Assembly (NCBI GenBank): GCA_009929975.1
Contig: RZZF01000002.1
Span: forward strand, 1 to 25,258
Direction: 5' to 3'
Origin: Clostridia bacterium
GTDB lineage: Bacteria > Bacillota > Clostridia > Saccharofermentanales > UBA5734
Length of the DNA stretch: 25,258 nucleotides
A program made the translations under genes and the position numbers. Under the pieces are notes generated by a model, which searched no databases, was not told the DNA's origin, and was given only the letters and a program-made list of their open reading frames with translations. Below are positions 1,470-25,258 of the stretch, piece by piece (the stretch's first letter is position 1; each line of letters begins with the position of its first letter).

Positions 1470-2808
1470 GTTCAGGTTCCTCCGCCATTTCTGTCTCCGG
1501 TACGGCTTGCCACAACATCAAGGTCAGATGTTCAAGTGCCCAGACAAGATCCTTGAGAAAACGGGCGGCCGGCGCGCCATCCAGCGCGCGATGGTCAAAG
1601 GTCAGCGACAGACCAATCGCCGGATAGGTGCTGATCGTACCGTTTTCAGCGCGGACGCGCTCAACAGCGCAGCCGACCCCGAGAATACAGGTCTGCGGCG
1701 GATTGATCACCGGAGTAAAATTTTCGACGCCGAGTGTTCCGAGATTGGTCACGGTAAATGTCCCGCCTTGAAGCAGGTCCGGATTGATGGTTCCCGTCTG
1801 GCAGTCGGCCGCCAGTTTTCGCGTCTGTTCCGTGATTTTTTCGAGTGTCAGTTGATCCGCAGCGCGCAGTGTCGGAACCATCAGACCCCGTGGTGTATCA
1901 ATCGCGACACCCAGATGGACTCTGCGGAACAAGGTCAGTCCGGCATCATCGTACCAGGCATTACAGGCCGAATGAAGCGGCAGCACTCGGGAAACCGCCC
2001 AGAGAATCAAATCATTTACGGTCGGTATGCGGCGGGACTGCGGCCAGTCCAGGCTCAACGGGTGCTGGTCGGCCGCCGCGGCTTTCAACTGGCCGCGCAG
2101 TCTGAACAGCTCAGTGGCGTCAAAACTGCTGTTCAATGTCAATTGAGCCATCGTGGACAATGATTCATGCATGGAACGGGCGATCAACTGGCGAACGCGG
2201 CTGTGTGGAACCTGCCGGATTTCGTCATCAACCGGCATCACCGGCGCAGCCGGCTCCGGTTCATGTCCTGCGGCCGATTGCCCCTCCGTACTGCCGGAGA
2301 GGCTGATCTTCAGAATATCGTCCTCAATCACCCGGCCCCCCGGTCCGCTGCCGCTGGCCTGCTGCCAGGAAACATTTTTCTGCTTTGCCAGCCGGCGCGC
2401 ACGGGGGCTGCTGCCGCTTTGTGCCGGCGGTACCGGGATGGCCGGTTCACGCTTTACGGATTCAGGTTGGACGGTAGCGGCCACCGGCTCCGCAGCGGCG
2501 GCCGCATCTTCAGACGCATCAGCCGCCCGGTCGTCTGCCGGACGCGGATCATAAGGATCAACGGATTCTCCGGGCTCACCGATCACCGCGACATGGTTGA
2601 GGCAGGGTACATCATCCCCTTCCTGATAGAAAACAGCCAGCAGGGTTCCGGCAACACGTGCCTTCTCATCAAAGGCGGCTTTATCCGTTTCATAGGTGAA
2701 TAAAAGATCATCCACCTCGACCCGGTCACCGACTTTACGATGCCATTCTCCAATGATGCAGCTTTCAACCGACTGGCCCTGACGGGGCATGATCACAGGT
2801 GTTGCCAT
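1462..2808 (-). CDS. 2-oxo-acid dehydrogenase complex dihydrolipoamide acyltransferase (E2)
   Basis: A 448-residue E2 acyltransferase with all three expected modules. An N-terminal lipoyl domain (about 1-78) carries the attachment lysine Lys43 in ETDKAAF. An Ala/Pro/Glu-rich linker leads to the E1/E3-binding domain (about 134-167, SPRARRLAKQK to GGRVIEDDIL). After a second linker comes the CoA-dependent acyltransferase domain (about 200-448) with the catalytic DHRALDG motif (His406, Asp410). It takes the acyl group made by E1 and transfers it to CoA. The ATG has an AGAGAGGA ribosome binding site, and the gene sits 26 bases after the SDR gene and overlaps the E3 gene. Pyruvate or acetoin is the most likely substrate class, but the sequence does not decide this. 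Confidence 0.94.
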   Translation of the reverse strand: MATPVIMPRQGQSVESCIIGEWHRKVGDRVEVDDLLFTYETDKAAFDEKARVAGTLLAVFYQEGDDVPCLNHVAVIGEPGESVDPYDPRPADDRAADASEDAAAAAEPVAATVQPESVKREPAIPVPPAQSGSSPRARRLAKQKNVSWQQASGSGPGGRVIEDDILKISLSGSTEGQSAAGHEPEPAAPVMPVDDEIRQVPHSRVRQLIARSMHESLSTMAQLTLNSSFDATELFRLRGQLKAAAADQHPLSLDWPQSRRIPTVNDLILWAVSRVLPLHSACNAWYDDAGLTLFRRVHLGVAIDTPRGLMVPTLRAADQLTLEKITEQTRKLAADCQTGTINPDLLQGGTFTVTNLGTLGVENFTPVINPPQTCILGVGCAVERVRAENGTISTYPAIGLSLTFDHRALDGAPAARFLKDLVWALEHLTLMLWQAVPETEMAEEPEHV

Positions 2809-2834
2809 AATGATGATTCCTCTCTCTAAATCGC

Positions 2835-3941
2835 CTAATTCAACATGACCTGGCCGCCCGTCACCGGGATCGCCTGGCCTGTTTCATACTCTTGTTCAAC
2901 ACAGTAGAAAATGGCCCGGGCGACATCGATCGGACGACAGCCGCGGCGCATGGGAACTTTCGCCGTATAGGCTCGATACACGTCATCAATGCTCGCCGCG
3001 CCTTCTATTTTTCCTGCTTTCAGATACTGGACAAACAGACCCTTATCCGGATCGCTCCACAGCGGTCCCTCGTAATAATTTCCGGGGCAGATCGCGTTGA
3101 CCTTGATCCGCCAGCTGACCAGTTCTTTGGCGAAACTCTGAACCAGGCCGATGCCGCCGAATTTACTTCCGGCATAGGCAAAATTCCGATCTGAGCCTTC
3201 GAGACCTGATTTCGAGTTGATCTGAATGATATCGGCGCTGTAGCCGGGGCATTCCTCAGCCTGCCGCTTCATCGGGCGGCAGCCGGCCCGGGCAACCAGA
3301 AAAAACCCGGTGTAGTTGACACGGGTCACGAACTCAAAATCCTCCGGCCTCAGTTCATCCAATCCGCCGGCACGAAGCACACCGGCATTGCTGATGATCA
3401 GATCCAATCCGCCATATAGGAGTGTCATGGTTTCGATCAGGGTGTTGACGGAGGATTCACTGGCGACATCAACCGGAAGCGCCAAAGCCTCCCCGCCGCT
3501 TTCATTGATCGATTCGGCCACAAACCGGGCCCGTTCCAGATTCAGGTCCGCGATCACGACAACCGCTCCGGCTGTGGCCAGCTCACGGGCAATGCCCTCA
3601 CCGAAGCCTTGTGCCGCTCCGGTCACCAGAGCGATTCGACCGCTCAGGCGGGCCGGGCCGCTCTGGCGCTGGCGCAGATGAAAACAGCCGGCCGGTGCGA
3701 TCCGGATACATTCAGGCTGGTGGCCTCCGGCATGGTCCAGCTGCTGCCGCAAAGCGCTGAGAAGCTGTTCAGGGCTGTCATAATCCGACGCGTCGATCGT
3801 CCAGACCGCCTTTTCATTCACGTCAGACGTTAAAGTTTCTTCAAACCTGACCTGCTTGAGCTTTGGCCAGAACAGGCCGCGCAGCCGCGGCGCCAGTTCC
3901 AGCGCAATCTGCTGTGGTGTCAGATGTTCTATCCAGTGCAT
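2835..3941 (-). CDS. SDR dehydrogenase, sorbitol-6-phosphate 2-dehydrogenase type, with N-terminal extension
   Basis: A 368-residue protein. Residues about 100-368 form a classical short-chain dehydrogenase: cofactor motif TGAAQGFG (107-114), NAG (185-187), and catalytic Ser243, Tyr256 and Lys260 in the YAGSK pattern. The C-terminal half (NAICPGNYYEGPLWSDP, then PVTGGQVM) resembles sorbitol-6-phosphate 2-dehydrogenases, which interconvert D-sorbitol-6-phosphate and fructose-6-phosphate. Residues 1-100 precede the Rossmann fold and match no domain I recognise; ordinary members have about 260 residues. The start has a GGAGGA site. The gene lies 31 bases after a SorE-like reductase, and SorE plus a sorbitol-6-phosphate dehydrogenase form the known L-sorbose-1-phosphate route. 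Family certain, substrate probable. Confidence 0.82.
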   Translation of the reverse strand: MHWIEHLTPQQIALELAPRLRGLFWPKLKQVRFEETLTSDVNEKAVWTIDASDYDSPEQLLSALRQQLDHAGGHQPECIRIAPAGCFHLRQRQSGPARLSGRIALVTGAAQGFGEGIARELATAGAVVVIADLNLERARFVAESINESGGEALALPVDVASESSVNTLIETMTLLYGGLDLIISNAGVLRAGGLDELRPEDFEFVTRVNYTGFFLVARAGCRPMKRQAEECPGYSADIIQINSKSGLEGSDRNFAYAGSKFGGIGLVQSFAKELVSWRIKVNAICPGNYYEGPLWSDPDKGLFVQYLKAGKIEGAASIDDVYRAYTAKVPMRRGCRPIDVARAIFYCVEQEYETGQAIPVTGGQVMLN

Positions 3942-3972: not shown

Positions 3973-5238
3973 TCAGATCGGCTGGGCCTGCTCAAGCAGG
4001 CAGCGTTCAGCTTCAGCGCACCACAGCTGCCGGTTCGCCGCGACAATGTCCGCCAATTCGCGAAACAGCGGGTCCTTCCCGCCCAGACGGGCAAAATCAC
4101 TAATCGCGGTCAGGGGAAGCCGGATTTGTGTATAAATCAATTTTTTACCGCCTGGAATCTTCGGCAGATTCAACGTGGTGTCGATGACGCTGTTCAGACC
4201 GCCGATATGCGTGATCATCGCCGAAGGATCGATCTGTCCGGCCGACATCATCTCCAACGCTTCGATCAGGTCATCCGTATTGCCGCCGCTGTTCCCGGCA
4301 ACATGAGTCGCCCGGTAATGGACATCGTAAAAATTGAGACGGGCTGAGAATTCCGGATCGGTCGGTCCGGCGAAGAAATTGAGGCACCCGTCATGGGCCA
4401 GAATCTGAACCGCCTGTTCCACCACGGCACTGACCGGTGCGTAGACATAAACATCATCGTATCCGTGACCGTCGCCGATTGACAGAAGATGCCCGGGGAC
4501 ATCGGATACATCACGCGTGTTGACATACACCAGACGGACACCGCAGCGCTCAGCTTCTGCCTCACTGTAGATCTCACGGGCCCGCTGCAGCCGGTCGTCA
4601 TCAATATCCGTTACGACCAGCAGGCCAGGCCTCCTGTCACAGTGCAGGGCATAGTCGATCGCGCCAAGTCCCATCGGTCCGACCCCGGCCAGCAAGGCCA
4701 TCTGACCGCCTTTGACAATCCCCATCCGGTGCTCATAACTGCCGGCCCGGGTGTGATAGTTGACATGAAACCCGCCGATGATGCAGGATACCGGCTCAGC
4801 CAGTGAGCCGTGGTAAAACGCCTCTCCCCGGTAAGGCAGGAGGCAGCCATGTTCCATCACCGTCTCAGGAATGATGATGCGGGTCGCCGCCCCGCCGATA
4901 TGGCGAAAACTGTAGCCAGGTGCCGCGTATGGGTCGGCCGGATCATTGATCGCCGGCTGGATCGCGAACCGGTCTCCGGCCTTGAACTGATGCTGCCAGC
5001 GGGAACCGACCTCGAGAATACGGCCGCAGAACTCGTGTCCGATGATCACCGGGTCGGTCGCGATCGTTTCCGGAACACGCTTATGGTCCGCTCCCTGTAT
5101 CGCTGCTTTATAGGAAGACATGCAGATACTGTCAGAGACAATTTCTGCCAGAATTTCTCCGGAACCGATTGGTGGAAGCTCAAACTGCTCCAGTCTCAAG
5201 TCATTTTTCCCATATAAACGAACGGCTTTTGTCTCCAT
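3973..5238 (-). CDS. sorE: L-sorbose-1-phosphate reductase-like zinc-dependent dehydrogenase
   Basis: A 421-residue medium-chain (zinc alcohol dehydrogenase) reductase. It keeps the catalytic zinc site (Cys39 in DSICMSSYK, His68-Glu69 in GHEFCG, Glu148 in LAEPVSC) and the nucleotide motif GVGPMG (185-190). The four cysteines of the structural zinc loop are absent; the stretch around 93-110 has none. The overall pattern (AVRLYGKNDLRLE at the start, HDGCLNFFAGPTD, then FYDVHYRATHVAGNSGGNTDD) matches my memory of SorE of enteric bacteria, which reduces L-sorbose-1-phosphate to D-sorbitol-6-phosphate. The next gene is a likely sorbitol-6-phosphate dehydrogenase, so the pair would lead to fructose-6-phosphate. 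The ATG is preceded by AAGGAG. It is the first gene of a minus-strand operon; no phosphotransferase transporter is visible here. Confidence 0.85.
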   Translation of the reverse strand: METKAVRLYGKNDLRLEQFELPPIGSGEILAEIVSDSICMSSYKAAIQGADHKRVPETIATDPVIIGHEFCGRILEVGSRWQHQFKAGDRFAIQPAINDPADPYAAPGYSFRHIGGAATRIIIPETVMEHGCLLPYRGEAFYHGSLAEPVSCIIGGFHVNYHTRAGSYEHRMGIVKGGQMALLAGVGPMGLGAIDYALHCDRRPGLLVVTDIDDDRLQRAREIYSEAEAERCGVRLVYVNTRDVSDVPGHLLSIGDGHGYDDVYVYAPVSAVVEQAVQILAHDGCLNFFAGPTDPEFSARLNFYDVHYRATHVAGNSGGNTDDLIEALEMMSAGQIDPSAMITHIGGLNSVIDTTLNLPKIPGGKKLIYTQIRLPLTAISDFARLGGKDPLFRELADIVAANRQLWCAEAERCLLEQAQPI

Positions 5239-6542: not shown

Positions 6543-8351
6543 ATGCAGACGGTTAAAGGAACACAACATTATCAGCGTCAGCGCTTTCGAGATCTGCGTG
6601 AGTTGCTGCGCTACTGCGCCACGGAGTACGCGGATCTGCCTGTCTACCGCTATCATGACTCGCCGGGCGGCCGGGAAACGGTCCATACCTATCGTGAGTA
6701 TGTCCGGACCATCGATGAGATGGGAACCGGTCTGGCGCAGTTGGGCCTGAAAGGCGCTTTTGTGGCGATCGTCGGTGCCAATGCCTATGAATGGGCTGTC
6801 TCATTCAACAGTGTTGTCAATGGACTTGGTGTCGCGGTGCCGCTTGACCGGCAGCTGCCCGAACCGGAGGTCATCAGCCTGTGCGAACGGGGCAAAGCCG
6901 AGGTGTTCATTTACAATAGCGGTCATCAGGCAATCGCTGAAGCCGTTGCCGCGACCAACCCGAAAATCCGTTATTTCATCTGTATGAAAGCGGAGACGAT
7001 CACCCCTGAACTGCGCTTGCGTGATCCCCGTTTCATTGAGTACCAGGAGGTCATCGAGCGCGGCCGGACAGCGCTGGCCGATGGCGACCGCAGTTTTGTC
7101 GAGGCTGATATCGATCCGGAAGCCCTGTGCTCTCTGCTTTTCACCTCGGGAACGACCGCGATGTCCAAAGGCGTCATGCTGTCACATCGCAATATCACTC
7201 ATAATGTGCATGCCGTGACCAGTACGATCAATGTTGAAAAAGGCCAGAGGGCGCTCTCAGTACTGCCCCTGCACCATACGTTTGAGAATACCGTCGGTAT
7301 GTACATGATGCAGGCCTACGGCTGCTCTATCTGCTTTACGGACGGACTTCGCTATATCTCGGATAATTTCAAGGAATGGGAGATCAACATTCTGCTGGCC
7401 GTACCGCTGCTCTTTGAGAATATCTATCACCAGATCCAGAAGACCCTGCAGCGCAGCGGCAAACTGCGGCTGGTCAATGCCATGCGCAAAATCTCCAATG
7501 TGCTGCGCTTCTTCGGCATTGATATCCGACGCAAACTATTTCACCAGATCATCGACGCGCTCGGCGGCGGCCTGAAACTCGGCGTCAGCGGCGCGGCTGC
7601 GATAGATAAGGAAATCGTCCGTTTCTTCAATGAGATCGGGATTGACTTCTTTGCCGGATACGGGTTGACTGAAACGTCACCTGTCGTGGCCGCCTGCAAT
7701 GAATTTGTCAATGTCTACGGCAGTGTCGGTCAGCCTTTGAGCACCGTAGAAGTCGCGATTGATACCGATGATCCCAAGCCCGGCGCGGTTGGTGAAATTC
7801 TCACACGAAGCGAAAGTGTCATGATGGGATATTATGAAAATGAAAGCGCGACGGCCGAAGCGATGACCGCGGACGGCTGGTTCCGTACCGGAGACAGTGG
7901 CTACCTGGATAAAAAAGGCTGCCTGTTCATCACCGGGCGGATTAAGTCGATGATCGTACTGACGAACGGCAAAAAAGCCTTCCCGGAAGAAATCGAATTT
8001 CTCATTGCCCATATTCCCGGTGTCAAGGAGTCCATCGTCTGGGGCGAATCGTCGAGCCGCGGCGCGGTTGATATCTGCGCCAAACTGGTGCTTGACCCTG
8101 ACAGCCTGCCACAGGAAACAGCCGGAGATATGGAAAAAATCAGTGTCTACATGAATCAGCAGATCAGCGAAATCAATCGCCAGATGCCGCCTTATAAGGC
8201 CATCAAATATTTCGTTCTTTCAGAAACCGATCTGGTCAAGACCACAACGCTGAAAGTCAAACGTCCAATGGAGCATGATCTCATTCACCAGCGGCTGGAA
8301 GCGCTCTCCAGTGATATGCGCTCATTAAGCGGCAAGATGATCGACGCCTGA
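6543..8351 (+). CDS. Long-chain fatty acid-CoA ligase (AMP-forming)
   Basis: A 602-residue member of the ANL adenylating superfamily, close in plan to long-chain acyl-CoA synthetases. It activates a carboxylic acid with ATP and transfers the acyl group to CoA. Core motifs are all present: phosphate-binding TSGTTAMSKG (201-210), GYGLTETSP (372-380), DGWFRTGD (444-451), the hinge GRIKSMIVLTNGKKAFPEEIE from 465, and the C-terminal catalytic Lys571 in TLKVKRP. The N-terminal subdomain is complete, unlike the paralogue at 21207-22703. A GGAGGAGG site precedes the ATG, and the gene has its own promoter, so it is probably monocistronic. The acyl chain length cannot be read from the sequence, and an acyl-carrier protein could replace CoA as acceptor. 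Confidence 0.9.
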   Translation: MQTVKGTQHYQRQRFRDLRELLRYCATEYADLPVYRYHDSPGGRETVHTYREYVRTIDEMGTGLAQLGLKGAFVAIVGANAYEWAVSFNSVVNGLGVAVPLDRQLPEPEVISLCERGKAEVFIYNSGHQAIAEAVAATNPKIRYFICMKAETITPELRLRDPRFIEYQEVIERGRTALADGDRSFVEADIDPEALCSLLFTSGTTAMSKGVMLSHRNITHNVHAVTSTINVEKGQRALSVLPLHHTFENTVGMYMMQAYGCSICFTDGLRYISDNFKEWEINILLAVPLLFENIYHQIQKTLQRSGKLRLVNAMRKISNVLRFFGIDIRRKLFHQIIDALGGGLKLGVSGAAAIDKEIVRFFNEIGIDFFAGYGLTETSPVVAACNEFVNVYGSVGQPLSTVEVAIDTDDPKPGAVGEILTRSESVMMGYYENESATAEAMTADGWFRTGDSGYLDKKGCLFITGRIKSMIVLTNGKKAFPEEIEFLIAHIPGVKESIVWGESSSRGAVDICAKLVLDPDSLPQETAGDMEKISVYMNQQISEINRQMPPYKAIKYFVLSETDLVKTTTLKVKRPMEHDLIHQRLEALSSDMRSLSGKMIDA

Positions 8352-18142: not shown

Positions 18143-18212
18143 GAATTTGGTTTTACTTGTCCTTCAGTCGCAGTCAGCGTTATTCTGATTTTTGCAGGAA
18201 AGGGTGAGACAT

Positions 18213-18977
18213 TTGAACTACCATATCTATCTGACACTGATCCCGGAAACACTGGTCATCTCAATGCTCAATCCTGAAGAATTTGCCGCTTATTACGCGA
18301 TCGGCGAGCGCGGTAAATCGAGCGGACAGGTTCTTTTCGTCGAAATCGACCCGGCCTTCAGGCATCCTTTCTTCCAGATTGACCAGGGCATTGCCCGCTG
18401 TGTCCCCACAGCAGACGGCCAGCCGAAATCATCGGTCTATGTCGCGATCTACCGTGTACTTGAGCATCTCCCGCTGGCGGCGATGGGAACGCTGTACTAT
18501 GTTGCCCGCGACGGCCGCTCACTGGGGGTCAGTAAAGTACCTGCCCTGAACAATGAAGAGGGTCTCCATCTCTATTTCGAACTGGCGCCCACGCGTCCGG
18601 CGGTTGTCAGTTCACTGGGGCCGCTGGATTATACGAATCTGATGATGGGCCGTCCCGGAGGTTTCCAGGGAATTCCGGCGATCGCGTTTGCTGAACTCAG
18701 ACTGGGCCGTCTTGCTGAAGATCCCGATCAGGGATCCGCTGACGACCTCCCCTACGAAAACCTGCCGCATCTGCGCAATTGTCTCCAGGAAGTCAAAACC
18801 AAGGATATCTCGTCAAAGATGTTTGACTTGAGCGGCGGACAGATCCTGACGTTCCGTATGGTCAAGAATGGTGTATTCGTCGGGAATTCAACCGAAGGAC
18901 TCTATCTTTATCCCCTGCCGTCCATGAGCGAACTTCGCCAGAACAATTATGACTGGTGGCGCTCCATCAATACGTAA
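18213..18977 (+). CDS. Protein of unknown function upstream of the proton pyrophosphatase
   Basis: A 254-residue protein that I do not recognise. It has no signal peptide or membrane segment and begins MNYHIYLTLIPETLVISMLN. Visible traits are a glycine-rich turn (MMGRPGGFQGIPAIAFAELRLG) in the middle, an acidic, polar stretch after it (EDPDQGSADDLPYEN), and an aromatic C-terminus (NNYDWWRSINT). I chose the TTG at 18213 because AAAGGGTGAG lies 5-8 bases before it; another in-frame TTG at 18192 lies upstream of that site. A good promoter precedes it. The pyrophosphatase gene begins 36 bases after its stop with no terminator between, so the two are probably co-transcribed and may be functionally linked. 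No function is claimed. Confidence 0.75.
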   Translation: MNYHIYLTLIPETLVISMLNPEEFAAYYAIGERGKSSGQVLFVEIDPAFRHPFFQIDQGIARCVPTADGQPKSSVYVAIYRVLEHLPLAAMGTLYYVARDGRSLGVSKVPALNNEEGLHLYFELAPTRPAVVSSLGPLDYTNLMMGRPGGFQGIPAIAFAELRLGRLAEDPDQGSADDLPYENLPHLRNCLQEVKTKDISSKMFDLSGGQILTFRMVKNGVFVGNSTEGLYLYPLPSMSELRQNNYDWWRSINT

Positions 18978-21089: not shown

Positions 21090-21120
21090 CCTGAGACGAA
21101 GTCCTGTCCGAAGATCAATG

Positions 21121-21160
21121 AACACGCCTGTCATCTCATGGGGTGACAGGCGTGTTTTTT
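21121..21160 (+). terminator. Strong intrinsic terminator after hppA
   Basis: AACACGCCTGTCA (21121-21133) and TGACAGGCGTGTT (21144-21156) form a perfect 13-pair stem with a 10-base loop, followed by a run of T to 21160. It lies 31 bases after the hppA stop, between convergent genes. On the minus strand the tail is only partly T-rich, so it may also slow transcription from the ligase gene. Confidence 0.92.
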
Positions 21161-21206: not shown

Positions 21207-22703
21207 CTATTGATAATTCCGTTTGATCTTTCTGGTCGTCGTTTTCTCAAACTCTGTTTCGCGGATGATAACCTGAGAGATCCGTTTGAATTTGGCCAGA
21301 TGACCGTTAACCTTCTCAATATCCGCCTTCAACTGAACACGGGCCCGCTCCAGACCCGTTTCACTGATAAATTGCGGATCGAGAAAAGCATCCGCCGCGA
21401 TGATCCGCTCATGGCCGAATTTATCTTTCGGAGCGAAGACAATGACTTCACGAAGGTAGGGAATCTGATTCATCAGGCATTCCTCCAGCTCCTCAGGATA
21501 GACATTTTTGCCATTCGAACTGATAATCAGGTTTTTGGCGCGCCCTGTGATATACACGTTATTTGCCTTATCAATACAACCGATGTCACCGGTTTTGAAC
21601 CATCCGTCCTCAGTGAATGATTGGCGGGTTGCCGCTTCATCTTTATAGTAGCCGAGCATGACATTATCACCTTTGACCTGAATTTCGCCTGCACCATCGT
21701 CATCAGGATCACTGATCCGGACCTGACAATCGGGTGCGACAGCTCCGACACTCCCCGGCACTTGAGAAATCGGACTGTTGCTCGATACGAGCGGGGAGCA
21801 TTCCGTAATGCCATACCCGTTGTAAATATCGATTCCAATATCAGCAAACGCTTTAATCCGTTGGGGATTCAACGGTGCGCCACCACAAAAAATCATTTTC
21901 AGATGGCCGCCCAACCCGTCAAGGATCGGCTTGAAAAACTGGTCACGACGATCGATTCCGAATACTCTGAGAAAATTACTGAGTAGGATGCCCAGCTTGA
22001 GCCGTGTTGCCTGGCCGGCCTTTTCAGCTTCCTTCCAGATATTCTTATGCAGGTGGTCAACGACCATGGGAACCATCATGGTCATGTCCGGCTTGAAAAT
22101 TCTCAGGTTCTCCTTGAAATTCTTGAGTTCATCATTAAAGCAGACGGTAAACCCTGCATAAAGACTCCCCAGGATAAACAAATTCATCTCAACCGTGTGA
22201 TTGATCGGCAGTAATGAAAAATACGTTTCAGCCTGTCTGAACATCGCCAGCGCGGAGTGGAGAACGGCGGTGATGTTCCGATGGCACAGCATCACGCCTT
22301 TATTGGCACCCGTTGTGCCCGAGGTAAAAATGATTGAGCACACTTTGTTTACATCCACTTCAGGATCAAAATCCACTGGGTCTCCCTGTGCCAGAATCTG
22401 CTGACCGGAATGAATCAGCTGCATCACGTCAGGCACACCCGCATCTTGATTGGTGTACCCGGTTTTGACAGCCATCCGGACATCCGGACACTGCTCCAGG
22501 ATAACGGATATCCGTGCGGCCTGGGATTGCGAATAAAAAACAGCATCGGCATCACTTAACTGCAGCTGTCGGTCTGTGTGTTCAACAAATTCCCGTTTCG
22601 TGTTGAATTCCCGGATAGCCACTTTGTCGCTGTGCGTTTCTGCCGCATACGCGACCAGTTCACGCAGATCGCTTAACCGGACACTGTCATAGTACTCCAT
22701 CAT
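21207..22703 (-). CDS. Acyl-CoA/acyl-adenylate ligase with an internal N-terminal deletion
   Basis: A 498-residue AMP-forming ligase related to the 602-residue enzyme at 6543. The catalytic core is intact: TSGTTGANKG (127-136), NGYGITECSP (295-304), DGWFKTGD (366-373), the hinge GRAKNLIISSNGKNVYPEELE from 387, and the C-terminal Lys492 in TTRKIKRN. However, residue 43 (EFVEHT) joins directly to a stretch beginning DRQLQLSDADAVFYS. Relative to the paralogue about 60 residues of the N-terminal subdomain are missing, in frame, around base 22574. Start choice is uncertain. The ATG at 22703 gives MMEYYDSVRLSDLREL, which aligns with the start of the paralogue; an in-frame TTG at 22760 has no ribosome site. 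It is divergent from the SPT-like gene, whose acyl donor it may supply. Confidence 0.85.
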   Translation of the reverse strand: MMEYYDSVRLSDLRELVAYAAETHSDKVAIREFNTKREFVEHTDRQLQLSDADAVFYSQSQAARISVILEQCPDVRMAVKTGYTNQDAGVPDVMQLIHSGQQILAQGDPVDFDPEVDVNKVCSIIFTSGTTGANKGVMLCHRNITAVLHSALAMFRQAETYFSLLPINHTVEMNLFILGSLYAGFTVCFNDELKNFKENLRIFKPDMTMMVPMVVDHLHKNIWKEAEKAGQATRLKLGILLSNFLRVFGIDRRDQFFKPILDGLGGHLKMIFCGGAPLNPQRIKAFADIGIDIYNGYGITECSPLVSSNSPISQVPGSVGAVAPDCQVRISDPDDDGAGEIQVKGDNVMLGYYKDEAATRQSFTEDGWFKTGDIGCIDKANNVYITGRAKNLIISSNGKNVYPEELEECLMNQIPYLREVIVFAPKDKFGHERIIAADAFLDPQFISETGLERARVQLKADIEKVNGHLAKFKRISQVIIRETEFEKTTTRKIKRNYQ

Positions 22704-22789
22704 CGTTTTACCCGTTGCCTCAATGGTCAAATCAAACTCATGTTCACCAGCAAAAATCAATGTAAAGATGATGATGTGAGAGCTGTTAT

Positions 22790-22867
22790 CATGATCATGT
22801 ACTGACTATTATGATATCAAAATATGATATGATTATCACGCATGTAATTTGATGATCAAATCATCAA
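22790..22867. promoter_or_regulatory. Cluster of TGAT/ATCA dyads in the divergent ligase/SPT-like promoter region
   Basis: The AT-rich gap between the two divergent starts contains four nearby palindromes: CATGATCATG (22790-22799), TGATATCA (22812-22819), TGATTATCA (22830-22838) and TTGATGAT-CAA-ATCATCAA (22849-22867, 8-base arms). ATGATAT also occurs twice in direct orientation. Such an array suits a dimeric repressor or activator controlling both genes. I see TATGAT-like -10 boxes near 22823-22833 but no convincing -35 partner, so exact promoters are not assigned. Confidence 0.5.
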
Positions 22868-22919
22868 TCATTTGAGCCGTTTAGCTGGTCATGAGACACC
22901 ATCAATTTCAGGAGGAGCG

Positions 22920-24152
22920 ATGAGCATGGACTTATTTCAAAAATGCGACGATTTCACACGGGTCGATCAAGCAAAAGCATTAGGGCTGTATCCATATTTC
23001 CACATGCTGACCTCCGGTCAGGATACAGAAGTCGACATGGACGGACATCGCACCCTCATGTTTGGCTCCAATAATTATCTGGGGCTGACTTCCGACCCCC
23101 GGGTCAAAGAAGCTTCAATCAAGGCAGTGGAAAAATATGGATCCGGCTGTTCCGGTTCCCGCTTTCTCAATGGCACGCTTGATCTGCACGTCGAGCTGGA
23201 AGCGGCTCTGGCCAGATTTCTTCAGAAAGAGGACGCCCTTGTCGTCTCAACAGGCTTCCAGACGAACCTTTCGATCATATCCGCCATCACCGGCCGCAAT
23301 GACTATATTCTTTCAGATGCCATGAATCACGCCAGTATTGTAGATGGTACACGCTTGTCGTTTGCCAAGACGCTCAAGTTCAAACACAGTGATATGGACG
23401 ATCTGGAACGTTTACTGATCCACTGTGCCGCCGACGAGAAAGCCGGCATCCTGATTGTAACCGATGGTGTGTTCAGCATTGAGGGCGAAATCTGCAAATT
23501 GCCGGATATTGTCCGTCTGGCTGGGAAATATGGCGCACGTGTCATGGTGGACGATGCCCATGCGATCGGTGTTCTCGGCCAACACGGGCGCGGGACAGCT
23601 GAATATTTCGGCTTGAATGATGGCGTTGATATTATCATGAACACCTTTTCAAAAACACTGGCGTCTCTGGGCGGCTGCATCGCGGCCAGCAAAAAGGTGA
23701 TTGACTATATCAAGCACAATGCCCGGCCATTCATCTTCAGCGCGTCCATCGCACCGGCCCAGGTCGCGGCCGCACGCGAAGCGCTGCGGATTCTTGAAAA
23801 CGAACCTCAGCGCGTTCGCCGGCTCAACGAGATCGCCGCTTATATGAAGCGTGGACTGAGCCAATTGCCCAATGTCCATATTTTTGACAATGGCAATGAT
23901 ATCGTCCCGATCGTACCGATCCTGACCGGTTCGATCGGACGGACGCTTTATACCGCCCATCTTCTGCTGGAAAACGGAGTTTATGTTAACCCGGTCCTGC
24001 CCCCCGCGGTTCATAAAGATTCCTGTCTGCAGCGCACAAGCTATTCCGCGACCCACACAAACGCCCAGCTGGATGAAGGAATTGCCATTATCAATAACGT
24101 GTTGACCCAGATCGCCGAGATGACGGATGTCAACTTCGATATTGATCTTTGA
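22920..24152 (+). CDS. Serine palmitoyltransferase-like alpha-oxoamine synthase
   Basis: A 410-residue PLP enzyme of the alpha-oxoamine synthase family, which condenses an amino acid with an acyl-CoA and releases CO2 and CoA. PLP Lys245 is in NTFSKTLASLGG, His137 in NHASI stacks on the cofactor, and Asp211 and His214 are in VDDAHAIGVLG. Arg372 in the RTSYSATHT stretch is where serine palmitoyltransferases bind the substrate carboxylate. The N-terminal LYPYF (23-27), QDTEV (34-38) and GSRFLNGTLDLH (79-90) match my memory of Bacteroides serine palmitoyltransferases more closely than KBL (glycine C-acetyltransferase) or BioF. The start has GGAGGAG just upstream; ATG 22926 is an alternative. Divergent from an acyl-ligase gene. 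Family certain; long-chain-base synthesis is a good inference but not proven, and related oxoamine products are possible. Confidence 0.85.
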   Translation: MSMDLFQKCDDFTRVDQAKALGLYPYFHMLTSGQDTEVDMDGHRTLMFGSNNYLGLTSDPRVKEASIKAVEKYGSGCSGSRFLNGTLDLHVELEAALARFLQKEDALVVSTGFQTNLSIISAITGRNDYILSDAMNHASIVDGTRLSFAKTLKFKHSDMDDLERLLIHCAADEKAGILIVTDGVFSIEGEICKLPDIVRLAGKYGARVMVDDAHAIGVLGQHGRGTAEYFGLNDGVDIIMNTFSKTLASLGGCIAASKKVIDYIKHNARPFIFSASIAPAQVAAAREALRILENEPQRVRRLNEIAAYMKRGLSQLPNVHIFDNGNDIVPIVPILTGSIGRTLYTAHLLLENGVYVNPVLPPAVHKDSCLQRTSYSATHTNAQLDEGIAIINNVLTQIAEMTDVNFDIDL

Positions 24153-24259
24153 TCACTTGAACAACGGCTGAATCACCCGGGCTTTGCGCGCGATCAAAAT
24201 ATCACAATAAGACTCATGGAAGAGGGCTCCGGTATTTGATTGAAATGAGGACTGTCAAT

Positions 24260-25258
24260 ATGAGCGGCACGGTTGATCTCTTCGGTCAATTTTTTCAAAA
24301 CATCGAAGATGAGGAAAAGCGAATGAAAACAGCCAACCTGATGGTCATCGGTAAAACCGGTGTCGGCAAGAGCACATTGATCAACTGTGTCTTCCGGGAT
24401 GATCTCGCTGACACGGGGGTTGGAACCCCCGTCACACGACATTTGCAGAAAATCACAAAGCCCGGCATTCCCCTGACCCTTTACGATACCAAGGGAATTG
24501 AACTGGATCAGGCCGTTCAGGCCGAAATCAAGCATGAGATTCTCGATGAAATCAACCGGCTGATCCAGCAAAATGAAAAAGAACACCTGATCCACATGAT
24601 CTGGTTTTGCATCAACAGCCTGTCCAGGCGGATTGAAGAGGTTGAGGTCGAATGGATCCGTTCATTCGCCGATAAAATTCCGGTCATCATTGTTCTGACG
24701 CAATGCGTCGGCGTTGACTACAAGGAGCTGGAGAACTATATCCGGGATCTCAATCTTCCGGTCAGAAATGTCCGGCCGGTGCTGGCACACGACATGCCAA
24801 TCACTGACGAATACACATTACCATCTTTCGGCCTGAAAGAACTGGTCGACACCACGTTCGACTGTCTGCCGGAAGCCGCCCATGCCGCGTTCATCAATGC
24901 CCAGAAGGTCAACATAGAACGTAAACTCGATACCGCCAATAAGGCGGTGCTGCCGTTTGTCACCGCGGCATTTGCGGAAGGCTTCAATCCGCTCCCCTTT
25001 GCCGACGCGGCTCTGCTGGTCCCCACTCAGCTGGCGATGCTGGCCAGGCTGACCGTCATCTTTGGTGTCCCGATCAATAAATCACTGATGACCAGCACGA
25101 TCTCAGGGGTCTTGGGCACTGGCGGCGCGACGCTGCTCGGCAGAACCATCGTGGCCAATATTGTCAAGTTCATCCCAGGTGTCGGAACAGTCGCCGGAGG
25201 AACCATCAGCGGAACAACGGCGGCCATGATCACAGCGGCGCTTGGCTTCGCCTACAAC
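24260..25258 (+). CDS. GTPase with DUF697-like C-terminal domain (3' end outside window)
   Basis: The first 333 residues are in the window and the frame is open to its end. A short N-terminal helix leads to a GTPase domain: Walker A GKTGVGKS (31-38), switch-I Thr in GTPVT (55-59) and G3 DTKG (76-79). The G4 position reads LTQCV (146-150) where NKxD or TKxD is normal. The second half (about 225 onward) has GFNPLPFADAALLVPTQLAMLARLTVIFG followed by glycine-rich hydrophobic stretches, like the membrane-associating DUF697 region of YcjF-type proteins. The ATG at 24260 has GAGGA 8 bases upstream; ATG 24245 is in frame but lacks a site. It follows the SPT-like gene by 107 bases without a terminator, so co-transcription is likely. 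Its cellular role is unknown; a membrane or envelope function is a guess. Confidence 0.85.
   Translation, partial: MSGTVDLFGQFFQNIEDEEKRMKTANLMVIGKTGVGKSTLINCVFRDDLADTGVGTPVTRHLQKITKPGIPLTLYDTKGIELDQAVQAEIKHEILDEINRLIQQNEKEHLIHMIWFCINSLSRRIEEVEVEWIRSFADKIPVIIVLTQCVGVDYKELENYIRDLNLPVRNVRPVLAHDMPITDEYTLPSFGLKELVDTTFDCLPEAAHAAFINAQKVNIERKLDTANKAVLPFVTAAFAEGFNPLPFADAALLVPTQLAMLARLTVIFGVPINKSLMTSTISGVLGTGGATLLGRTIVANIVKFIPGVGTVAGGTISGTTAAMITAALGFAYN

What the first reader, a model, noticed from the sequence alone, without database searches (positions are those of the whole stretch)
21207..25258. Possible sphingolipid-like (alpha-oxoamine lipid) module: SPT-like enzyme, divergent acyl-ligase and a membrane-type GTPase
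The PLP enzyme carries serine-palmitoyltransferase-type sequences (LYPYF, QDTEV, GSRFLNGTLDLH, Arg in RTSYSATHT) and a complete catalytic set. An acyl-adenylating enzyme is transcribed from the same control region, which would supply acyl-CoA or acyl-ACP; in Caulobacter an acyl-CoA synthetase gene also belongs to the sphingolipid gene set. Long-chain bases are known mainly from Bacteroidota and some Proteobacteria, so such a module in a Bacillota-like genome would be unusual. No ceramide synthase or ketosphinganine reductase is visible before the window ends.
Basis: partly seen in the sequence, partly recalled or inferred. Interest (0 to 1): 0.82.

Follow-up and report, generated by a model that had tools for sequence, protein, structure and literature searches.

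The report
Clostridial serine palmitoyltransferase, second copy
This uncultured clostridium carries an apparently intact second copy of the enzyme that starts sphingolipid synthesis, and many related clostridia keep that enzyme next to a likely partner reductase, which suggests that these membrane lipids may be made in a group of bacteria where they are rarely looked for.

Summary
The PLP gene (22920-24152, +) belongs with Bacteroidota serine palmitoyltransferases (SPT), not with KBL, BioF or CapA: Sphingobacterium SPT 417 bits against at most 270 for any KBL/BioF entry, intact active site, careful tree split 100/99. It is not a curiosity of one genome: 21 of 23 family genomes and 49 of 391 sampled class genomes have such an enzyme. 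In the window's own assembly no such reductase was found, and this SPT is an extra copy; another contig holds the second. The "divergent" ligase lacks 61 residues in frame; a 559-residue version exists. Its link to SPT is narrow. The GTPase has no match in 135 SPT loci of relatives. Best reading: a paralogous SPT making 3-ketosphinganine-type long-chain bases. New member of a known kind; the interest is the Bacillota-wide SPT-reductase pair. No activity or lipid has been shown.

The parts
22920..24152 (+). SPT-type alpha-oxoamine synthase (410 aa; 408 if ATG 22926 is used), second copy in this genome
   Evidence: NCBIfam SerpalmtaseCFB 525.7 bits vs next best 382 (KBL), cut-off 640 not met; PDB best Sphingobacterium SPT 417 bits; trees; residues; AGGAGG and ATG
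21207..22703 (-). fatty-acyl adenylating ligase (AMP-binding), 498 aa with a 61-residue in-frame internal deletion; divergent from the SPT gene
   Evidence: full-length version P0121 of 559 aa
22704..22919 (.). shared 216-bp intergenic control region; perfect inverted repeat TTGATGAT-3-ATCATCAA at 22849-22867 (possible operator, function unknown)
   Evidence: 1 match at up to 3 mismatches in the window; 24 of 100 shuffles had at least one
24260..25258 (+). GTPase (MMR_HSR1; DUF697 below its cut-off), cut by the contig end; probably not part of the lipid function
   Evidence: no match in 135 SPT loci of relatives
21120..21157 (+). terminator-like hairpin (17 pairs, T tail) after the pyrophosphatase gene, separating the locus from upstream genes
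   Evidence: a consensus match; 7 sites found in the region, 3.9 expected

Best explanation
The PLP gene encodes a serine palmitoyltransferase of the Bacteroidota/Sphingobacterium type. It would condense a long-chain fatty-acyl thioester with L-serine on PLP-Lys (Lys244 in Sphingobacterium numbering) and release CO2, giving a 3-ketosphinganine-type long-chain base. In relatives the next step, NADPH reduction to sphinganine, would be done by the SDR encoded beside SPT. In this genome SPT is duplicated: the copy on contig C425 groups (weakly) with that of a same-genus genome and the window copy is a paralogue, possibly with its own acyl supply or regulation through the divergent ligase, whose present copy looks damaged. 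Shown by sequence: SPT-type family, intact active site, the SPT-reductase pairing in relatives, two copies. Inferred: substrate (serine rather than alanine or glycine), chain length, product, and any role of the ligase.
For: SerpalmtaseCFB is the best of 18950 NCBIfam models for the window protein, the second copy and two relatives (525.7, 520.5, 491.2, 521.7 bits; next best 372-399, which for two of the four is another SPT model). PDB: Sphingobacterium SPT 417 bits, BioF/KBL 269-270, KBL 256, CapA 217. N52, Y54, G80, S81, H138, S185, D210, H213, T241, F242, S243, K244, A274, R367 of Sphingobacterium SPT are all kept in the window and in 50 of 50 Bacillota-clade rows (roles of N52, Y54, G80, S81, H138, S185, D210, H213, T241, S243, K244, A274 from passages of PMC10196870). 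Careful tree: SPT rows apart from KBL/BioF at 100/99; Bacillota clade 100/98. Reductase: best NCBIfam family is KdsR in 6 of 6 SPT-neighbouring SDRs tested (L041, L059, L066; L162, L181, L225). SDR within 1.5 kb of SPT in 12 of 28, 21 of 27 and 22 of 26 loci of three partly overlapping sets; in the last, all 25 SDR hits (E<=1e-12) in 291 kb were beside SPT. SPT and KdsR-like (>= 145 bits) co-occur: 25 both, 3 SPT only, 7 reductase only, 23 neither of 58 genomes (sets read by hand). Two copies in G000, one in each of the other 20 positive family genomes.
Against: NCBI's curated cut-offs are met neither by this SPT (525.7 < 640) nor by any reductase (at most 298 < 400); the reductase cut-off was passed in 0 of 58 genomes and 0 of 14 controls, Bacteroides ihuae included. 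No KdsR-like gene in this assembly at E<=1e-30, nor a match to the neighbour SDR at E<=1e-25. A79 is Ser, S245 is Thr and M271 is Ile in the window. The AU test that moves the root was not decisive (p 0.535), and two outgroup rows have very long branches. BioF shares G80 and S81 with SPT (2 of 2 rows). No ceramide synthase found in this genome with the one query tried. No activity or lipid data.
Confidence: 0.78

Rival explanations
1. The enzyme is an SPT-like alpha-oxoamine synthase whose main substrate is alanine or glycine, giving 1-deoxy or 1-deoxymethyl long-chain bases, or another amino acid, rather than sphinganine.
For: A79, which meets the substrate side chain through a water (PMC10196870 passage), is Ser in 50 of 50 Bacillota-clade rows against Ala in 12 of 14 Bacteroidota rows; M271 is Ile. 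Sphingobacterium SPT itself uses Ala and Gly, with much lower efficiency (PMC10196870, start of abstract in the listing). 1-deoxysphingolipids were reported from euxinic Black Sea water (PMC11334938, abstract passage).
Against: Two of 14 Bacteroidota rows also have Ser at 79 and ten also have Ile at 271; the other serine-contacting residues (N52, G80, S81, H138) are unchanged.
Confidence: 0.12
2. It is a KBL (glycine C-acetyltransferase) or BioF paralogue that resembles SPT by chance.
For: Substantial KBL and BioF profile scores (382 and 366 bits); all are one superfamily; the root between them is hard to place; BioF rows share G80 and S81. A zinc-type dehydrogenase gene lies 18 kb away (3973-5238), but its threonine-dehydrogenase score is 43 bits against a cut-off of 380 and its best model is another.
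Against: 143 bits better to the SPT profile; Bacillota + KBL rejected, p 0.007; no clear tdh or bio gene among the window proteins scanned; reductase pairing in relatives; the four KBL-type rows have Ser/Ala, Val, Leu and Thr/Asn where 64 of 64 SPT rows have G80, S81, F242, A274.
Confidence: 0.04
3. The window locus is a redundant copy in decay or recently acquired: SPT2 still intact, its ligase partner damaged, no reductase in the genome, so that it makes little or nothing.
For: 61-residue deletion in the ligase bounded by QLQ coding stretches; G+C 0.46-0.53 over 21-25 kb against 0.51-0.59 in the rest; a second SPT on C425; no KdsR-like match.
Against: SPT2 has no lesion and keeps the catalytic residues checked; metagenome proteins of 80-88% identity exist (P0002-P0010); the assembly is 86% complete in 479 contigs and both same-genus genomes have a KdsR-like gene (204 and 200 bits); the deletion could be an assembly or strain variant, since P0121 lacks it.
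Confidence: 0.2
4. SPT2 and the ligase form a dedicated pair like Caulobacter SPT/AasR, with the ligase charging an ACP for SPT.
For: Divergent adjacent genes with one control region; a second species with both on one 4357-base contig, judged by equal contig length (P0004/P0123); in Rhodobacteria SPT co-occurs with ACP and acyl-ACP synthetase genes (PMC9386255 passages).
Against: The gaps around the two genes (117, 216 and 107 bp) leave no room for an ACP gene; ligase orthologue in only 1 of 22 other family genomes at E<=1e-150 and there on another contig; a ligase match in 1 of 28 Saccharofermentanales SPT loci, L042, 39% over a part and 9 kb away, and in 0 of 107 further SPT loci (27 of these have only 1.5-kb flanks); damaged copy here.
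Confidence: 0.2

Closest known systems
Serine palmitoyltransferase of Sphingobacterium multivorum (PDB 3a2b, 8guh)
   Same: best solved relative, 417 bits over residues 5-397; same catalytic and most serine-binding residues
   Different: Ser for Ala79, Ile for Met271, Thr for Ser245; separate Bacillota clade
Bacteroides thetaiotaomicron pathway SPT (BT_0870) + 3-ketosphinganine reductase (BT_0972)
   Same: same two enzyme types; KdsR is the best family of the SPT-neighbouring SDRs tested
   Different: in Bacteroides the two genes do not cluster (PMC9278070 passage); in many Bacillota relatives they are neighbours; in the window's assembly no reductase was found. Direct comparison with the BT_0870 and BT_0972 sequences was not made
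Caulobacter-type Spt/bCerS/CerR with AcpR and AasR
   Same: an AMP-binding ligase near SPT
   Different: no room for an ACP gene beside SPT and no NAD-epimerase reductase recognised; among 80 named SPT loci the SDR type (30) and the presumed bCerS type (23) overlap in one
CapA cysteate fatty acyltransferase (PDB 28eh)
   Same: same superfamily
   Different: 217 bits against 417 for SPT

Membership tests
serine palmitoyltransferase (Bacteroidota type) | best match among curated AOS families | tested here: met
   SerpalmtaseCFB 525.7 bits vs KBL 382.3, TIGR01825 377, BioF 365.9
serine palmitoyltransferase (Bacteroidota type) | NCBI curated cut-off of NF047600 (640 bits) | tested here: not met
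   525.7; 520.5 in the second copy, 491.2 and 521.7 in two relatives
serine palmitoyltransferase (Bacteroidota type) | PLP lysine, Asp, His, stacking His, TFSK motif, serine-binding N52/S81 | tested here: met
   with residue roles from PMC10196870 passages
serine palmitoyltransferase (Bacteroidota type) | groups with characterised SPT apart from KBL and BioF | tested here: met
   100/99 in the careful tree, Bacillota+KBL rejected p 0.007; but the root alternative is not rejected, p 0.535
serine palmitoyltransferase (Bacteroidota type) | makes 3-ketosphinganine from serine and long-chain acyl thioester | not testable with these tools
   needs an assay
SPT-KDSR gene pair | KdsR-like SDR next to SPT | tested here: not met
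   not beside SPT in the window nor in the assembly at the thresholds used; met in 22 of 26 named Bacillota/Mycoplasmatota loci
3-ketodihydrosphingosine reductase NF049977 (neighbour SDR of relatives) | curated cut-off 400 bits | tested here: not met
   202-298 bits, yet best family in 6 of 6; cut-off reached in 0 of 58 genomes and 0 of 14 controls
glycine C-acetyltransferase (KBL) | groups with KBL, tdh alongside | tested here: not met
   the only dehydrogenase with a threonine-dehydrogenase match is 18 kb away at 43 bits, cut-off 380
8-amino-7-oxononanoate synthase (BioF) | groups with BioF, bio genes alongside | tested here: not met
   tree (no AU test for BioF alone); no bio gene recognised among the window proteins scanned
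Caulobacter-type sphingolipid cluster | ACP, bCerS and CerR near SPT | tested here: not met
   gaps of 117, 216 and 107 bp around ligase and SPT, neighbours are pyrophosphatase and GTPase; a presumed bCerS-type query found nothing in G000 at E<=1e-10
functional acyl-CoA/ACP ligase | complete adenylation domain | tested here: not met
   61 residues of the N-terminal part missing in frame

The most novel reading that the evidence does not exclude
Many Clostridia and Acholeplasmataceae-like bacteria make sphingoid lipids by a compact SPT + 3-ketosphinganine reductase gene pair with the eukaryote-like order (condense, then reduce). Among SPT loci this pair and the Spt/bCerS/CerR cluster are almost mutually exclusive, so surveys that look for bCerS and CerR beside Spt miss it. 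In the window's species the pathway has gained a second SPT with its own divergently transcribed acyl ligase.
Probability: 0.5. Interest if true: 0.75.

Novelty: new member of a known kind. Interest (0 to 1): 0.5.

Why it matters
Bacterial sphingolipids shape host immunity and membrane properties and are usually credited to Bacteroidota and some Proteobacteria. An SPT in a sizeable minority of Clostridia (29 of 223 sampled genera), often beside a reductase, would widen the list of likely producers in guts, rumens and digesters, and offers a candidate reductase for lineages where Spt occurs without bCerS/CerR nearby, as PMC11334938 reports for Cloacimonadota (passage). One hit whose record title names a strain rather than a MAG, Peloplasma aerotolerans M4Ah (L181), makes the claim directly testable.

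Tried and rejected
GTPase as part of the module: rejected, no match in the 28 and 107 SPT loci (nor in 20 further loci), with a working positive control. KBL/BioF/CapA reading: rejected. Contig wrongly binned: not supported; its tetranucleotide profile is closest to the genome's other SPT contig (0.755) among 18 loci compared, and its 6-phosphogluconate dehydrogenase is nearest to the two same-genus genomes (78% full length; 79% over a 200-residue fragment). Ligase as a conserved SPT partner: weak. bCerS-type ceramide synthase: a 380-aa protein near SPT-KDSR in one clostridial locus (L162) is only 30% identical to the type-B neighbour of SPT in L183, has no Pfam family, and RecO and a PEP-utilising enzyme lie between; of 58 genomes 7 match it at E<=1e-10, strongly only G018 and G022, G000 not: left open. 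The names bCerS and CerR for those neighbour clusters rest on gene order that I recall, not on a labelled sequence. Literature: the searches listed no paper on sphingolipid genes of Clostridia or Saccharofermentans that I recognised from titles and abstract starts (lists were capped at 8-20); PMC11334938 main text has no 'Firmicutes', 'Bacillota' or 'Clostridi'; [quoted passage not shown] The key earlier survey (10.1038/s41589-021-00948-7) is not held, so prior reports cannot be excluded. Of papers I saw listings, abstract starts and passages only, no whole text. Structure prediction and fold search were not run: the fold is not in doubt from sequence.
Full report
WHAT IS THERE. The window is one whole contig (C386, 25258 bases) of a 2.18-Mb, 479-contig, 86%-complete assembly. 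Order Saccharofermentanales is suggested by the source name of P0012, 80% identical in SPT, not by a taxonomy call. The last 4 kb hold a minus-strand AMP-binding gene (21207-22703), a 216-bp shared control region with a perfect 8-bp inverted repeat, a PLP enzyme gene (22920-24152) and a GTPase gene cut by the contig end. A terminator-like hairpin at 21120-21157 closes the upstream pyrophosphatase gene. G+C falls to 0.46-0.53 here against 0.51-0.59 before.

THE PLP ENZYME. The best NCBIfam model of 18950 is the Bacteroidota serine palmitoyltransferase, 525.7 bits (curated cut-off 640 not met); KBL has 382, BioF 366. The best PDB chain is Sphingobacterium multivorum SPT, 417 bits; the next protein, annotated BioF/KBL, has 269 and CapA 217. 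Against Sphingobacterium numbering, N52, Y54, G80, S81, H138, S185, D210, H213, T241, F242, S243, K244, A274 and R367 are present in the window and in 50 of 50 Bacillota-clade rows; A79 is Ser, S245 Thr, M271 Ile. Roles of most of these come from passages of PMC10196870. In a quick tree of 87 rows and a careful tree of 46 rows the SPT-type rows stand apart from the outgroup (99 SH-aLRT; 100/99), with a Bacillota clade (99; 100/98) that holds the window gene; in the 87-row tree two rows titled Paludibacteraceae and Spirochaetales fall inside that clade. Forcing the Bacillota rows together with KBL alone is rejected (AU p 0.007); forcing them together with all ten outgroup rows is not (p 0.535), so the root between Bacillota and Bacteroidota SPTs is open.

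DISTRIBUTION. 21 of 23 genomes of the family have the enzyme at E<=1e-120, 28 of 58 relatives by a line that I drew in the gap between 475 and 311 bits of the table, and 49 of 391 genomes sampled from the class at E<=1e-100, in 29 of 223 genera; the two weakest of these 49 are 48% identical. G000 alone of the 21 positive family genomes has two copies: the one on C425 groups with a same-genus genome (96 SH-aLRT; only 90/49), the window one with P0002 and P0012 and then with three genomes of genus g2 whose SPT sits beside the reductase (100/97 and 99/92).

THE MISSING REDUCTASE. Clustering neighbours of 28 fetched SPT loci showed one partner in 12 loci, an SDR of about 285-300 residues; two other families recur in 8 loci each, among close relatives. 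Its best NCBIfam family is 3-ketodihydrosphingosine reductase in 6 of 6 proteins tested from Saccharofermentanales, another clostridium, Peloplasma and Bacteroidales (202-298 bits, cut-off 400 not met). Searching the family over 58 genomes gave 145-253 bits in 32 genomes and at most 132 for any other listed match (E<=1e-30); no genome and none of 14 controls passed the cut-off. The SDR lies within 1.5 kb of SPT in 12 of 28 Saccharofermentanales loci (of the 16 misses, 8 have flanks under 1.5 kb on at least one side), 21 of 27 class loci (all held with about 1.5-kb flanks or less) and 22 of 26 named Bacillota/Mycoplasmatota loci; from the last set I dropped L176 and L183, titled as other phyla, before counting. 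The three sets overlap in part (L160 and L161 repeat loci of the other sets), so they are not independent. Co-occurrence over 58 genomes is 25/3/7/23 (Fisher p 3e-7; by genus 13/0/3/9, p 1e-4), uncorrected for relatedness. In G000 itself none was found (E<=1e-25 and 1e-30), while both same-genus genomes have one, on another contig than SPT.

TWO ARCHITECTURES. In the 80 named loci, 30 have the SDR cluster and 23 a cluster of about 380-residue proteins of no Pfam family (two tested), 13 of the 23 together with an NAD-epimerase-type protein (one member scanned, L189); the first two overlap only in L162. The second type resembles the Spt/bCerS/CerR cluster of the literature by gene order (recalled). 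Rubrobacter and Aureispira plasmid records show SPT beside a hypothetical protein and an NAD(P)-dependent oxidoreductase, and the Rubrobacter protein is 40% identical to the L183 member of the 380-residue cluster.

THE LIGASE. It is a long-chain acyl ligase by profile (PRK06187 217 bits, cut-off 476 not met). That pattern fits a short-repeat deletion; strain variant or assembly error cannot be told apart. Close orthologues are rare: among 22 other family genomes only G011 at E<=1e-150, 53%, on a different contig from its SPT. A second pair is suggested by P0004 and P0123, both listed with a 4357-base contig; P0007 and P0130 share a 1379280-base contig length, which says nothing about distance.

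MECHANISM AND LIMITS. Most likely: acyl thioester + L-serine to 3-ketosphinganine on the window SPT, then reduction by a KDSR in relatives. Substrate, acyl donor (CoA or ACP), second acyl transfer and head group are not shown. PMC9278070 (passages) showed that such a reductase works in Bacteroides, where the two genes do not cluster. PMC11334938 (passages) widened potential producers to about 40 phyla and noted lineages with Spt but no bCerS/CerR nearby. A link of those lineages to the SDR pair is my suggestion and untested.

VERDICT. By sequence a real SPT gene, an extra copy in a lineage where SPT is normal; the ligase is doubtful and the GTPase incidental. The wider SPT-reductase pair in Bacillota is the part a specialist would want to test.

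Noticed in passing
L098:8006-11491, L099:5661-9104, L100:7988-11383, L101:7598-11074, L115:5482-8814: Single ORFs of about 1110-1161 residues in same-order genomes of another family; two of the five (L100, L115) were scanned and show AMP-binding ligase + phosphopantetheine carrier + alpha-oxoamine synthase. These five genomes (G043, G051, G048, G046, G054) have a KdsR-like SDR but no SPT-clade gene by the lines I drew: a possible fused replacement.
   Followed up: partly
L120:5634-9221: Priestia megaterium plasmid with an SPT-like gene (49% to the window's) beside a methyltransferase and an acyltransferase gene, near a retron.
   Followed up: partly
window 21207-22703: Ligase with a 61-residue in-frame deletion bounded by repeated QLQ coding sequence; a 559-residue version exists in another record.
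   Followed up: yes
window 22849-22867: Perfect inverted repeat TTGATGAT-CAA-ATCATCAA in the divergent promoter region; only one site in the window at up to 3 mismatches.
   Followed up: partly
L162:1013-2692, L169:5340-6987, L172:435-1214 and 2566-3333: Two SDR genes beside SPT in three clostridial loci.
   Followed up: no
window 18192-18977: 261-residue ORF with no Pfam or NCBIfam match at E<=0.001.
   Followed up: no
window 6543-8351: A second long-chain acyl ligase (602 residues, PF00501 3e-59), 34% identical to the one beside SPT.
   Followed up: no
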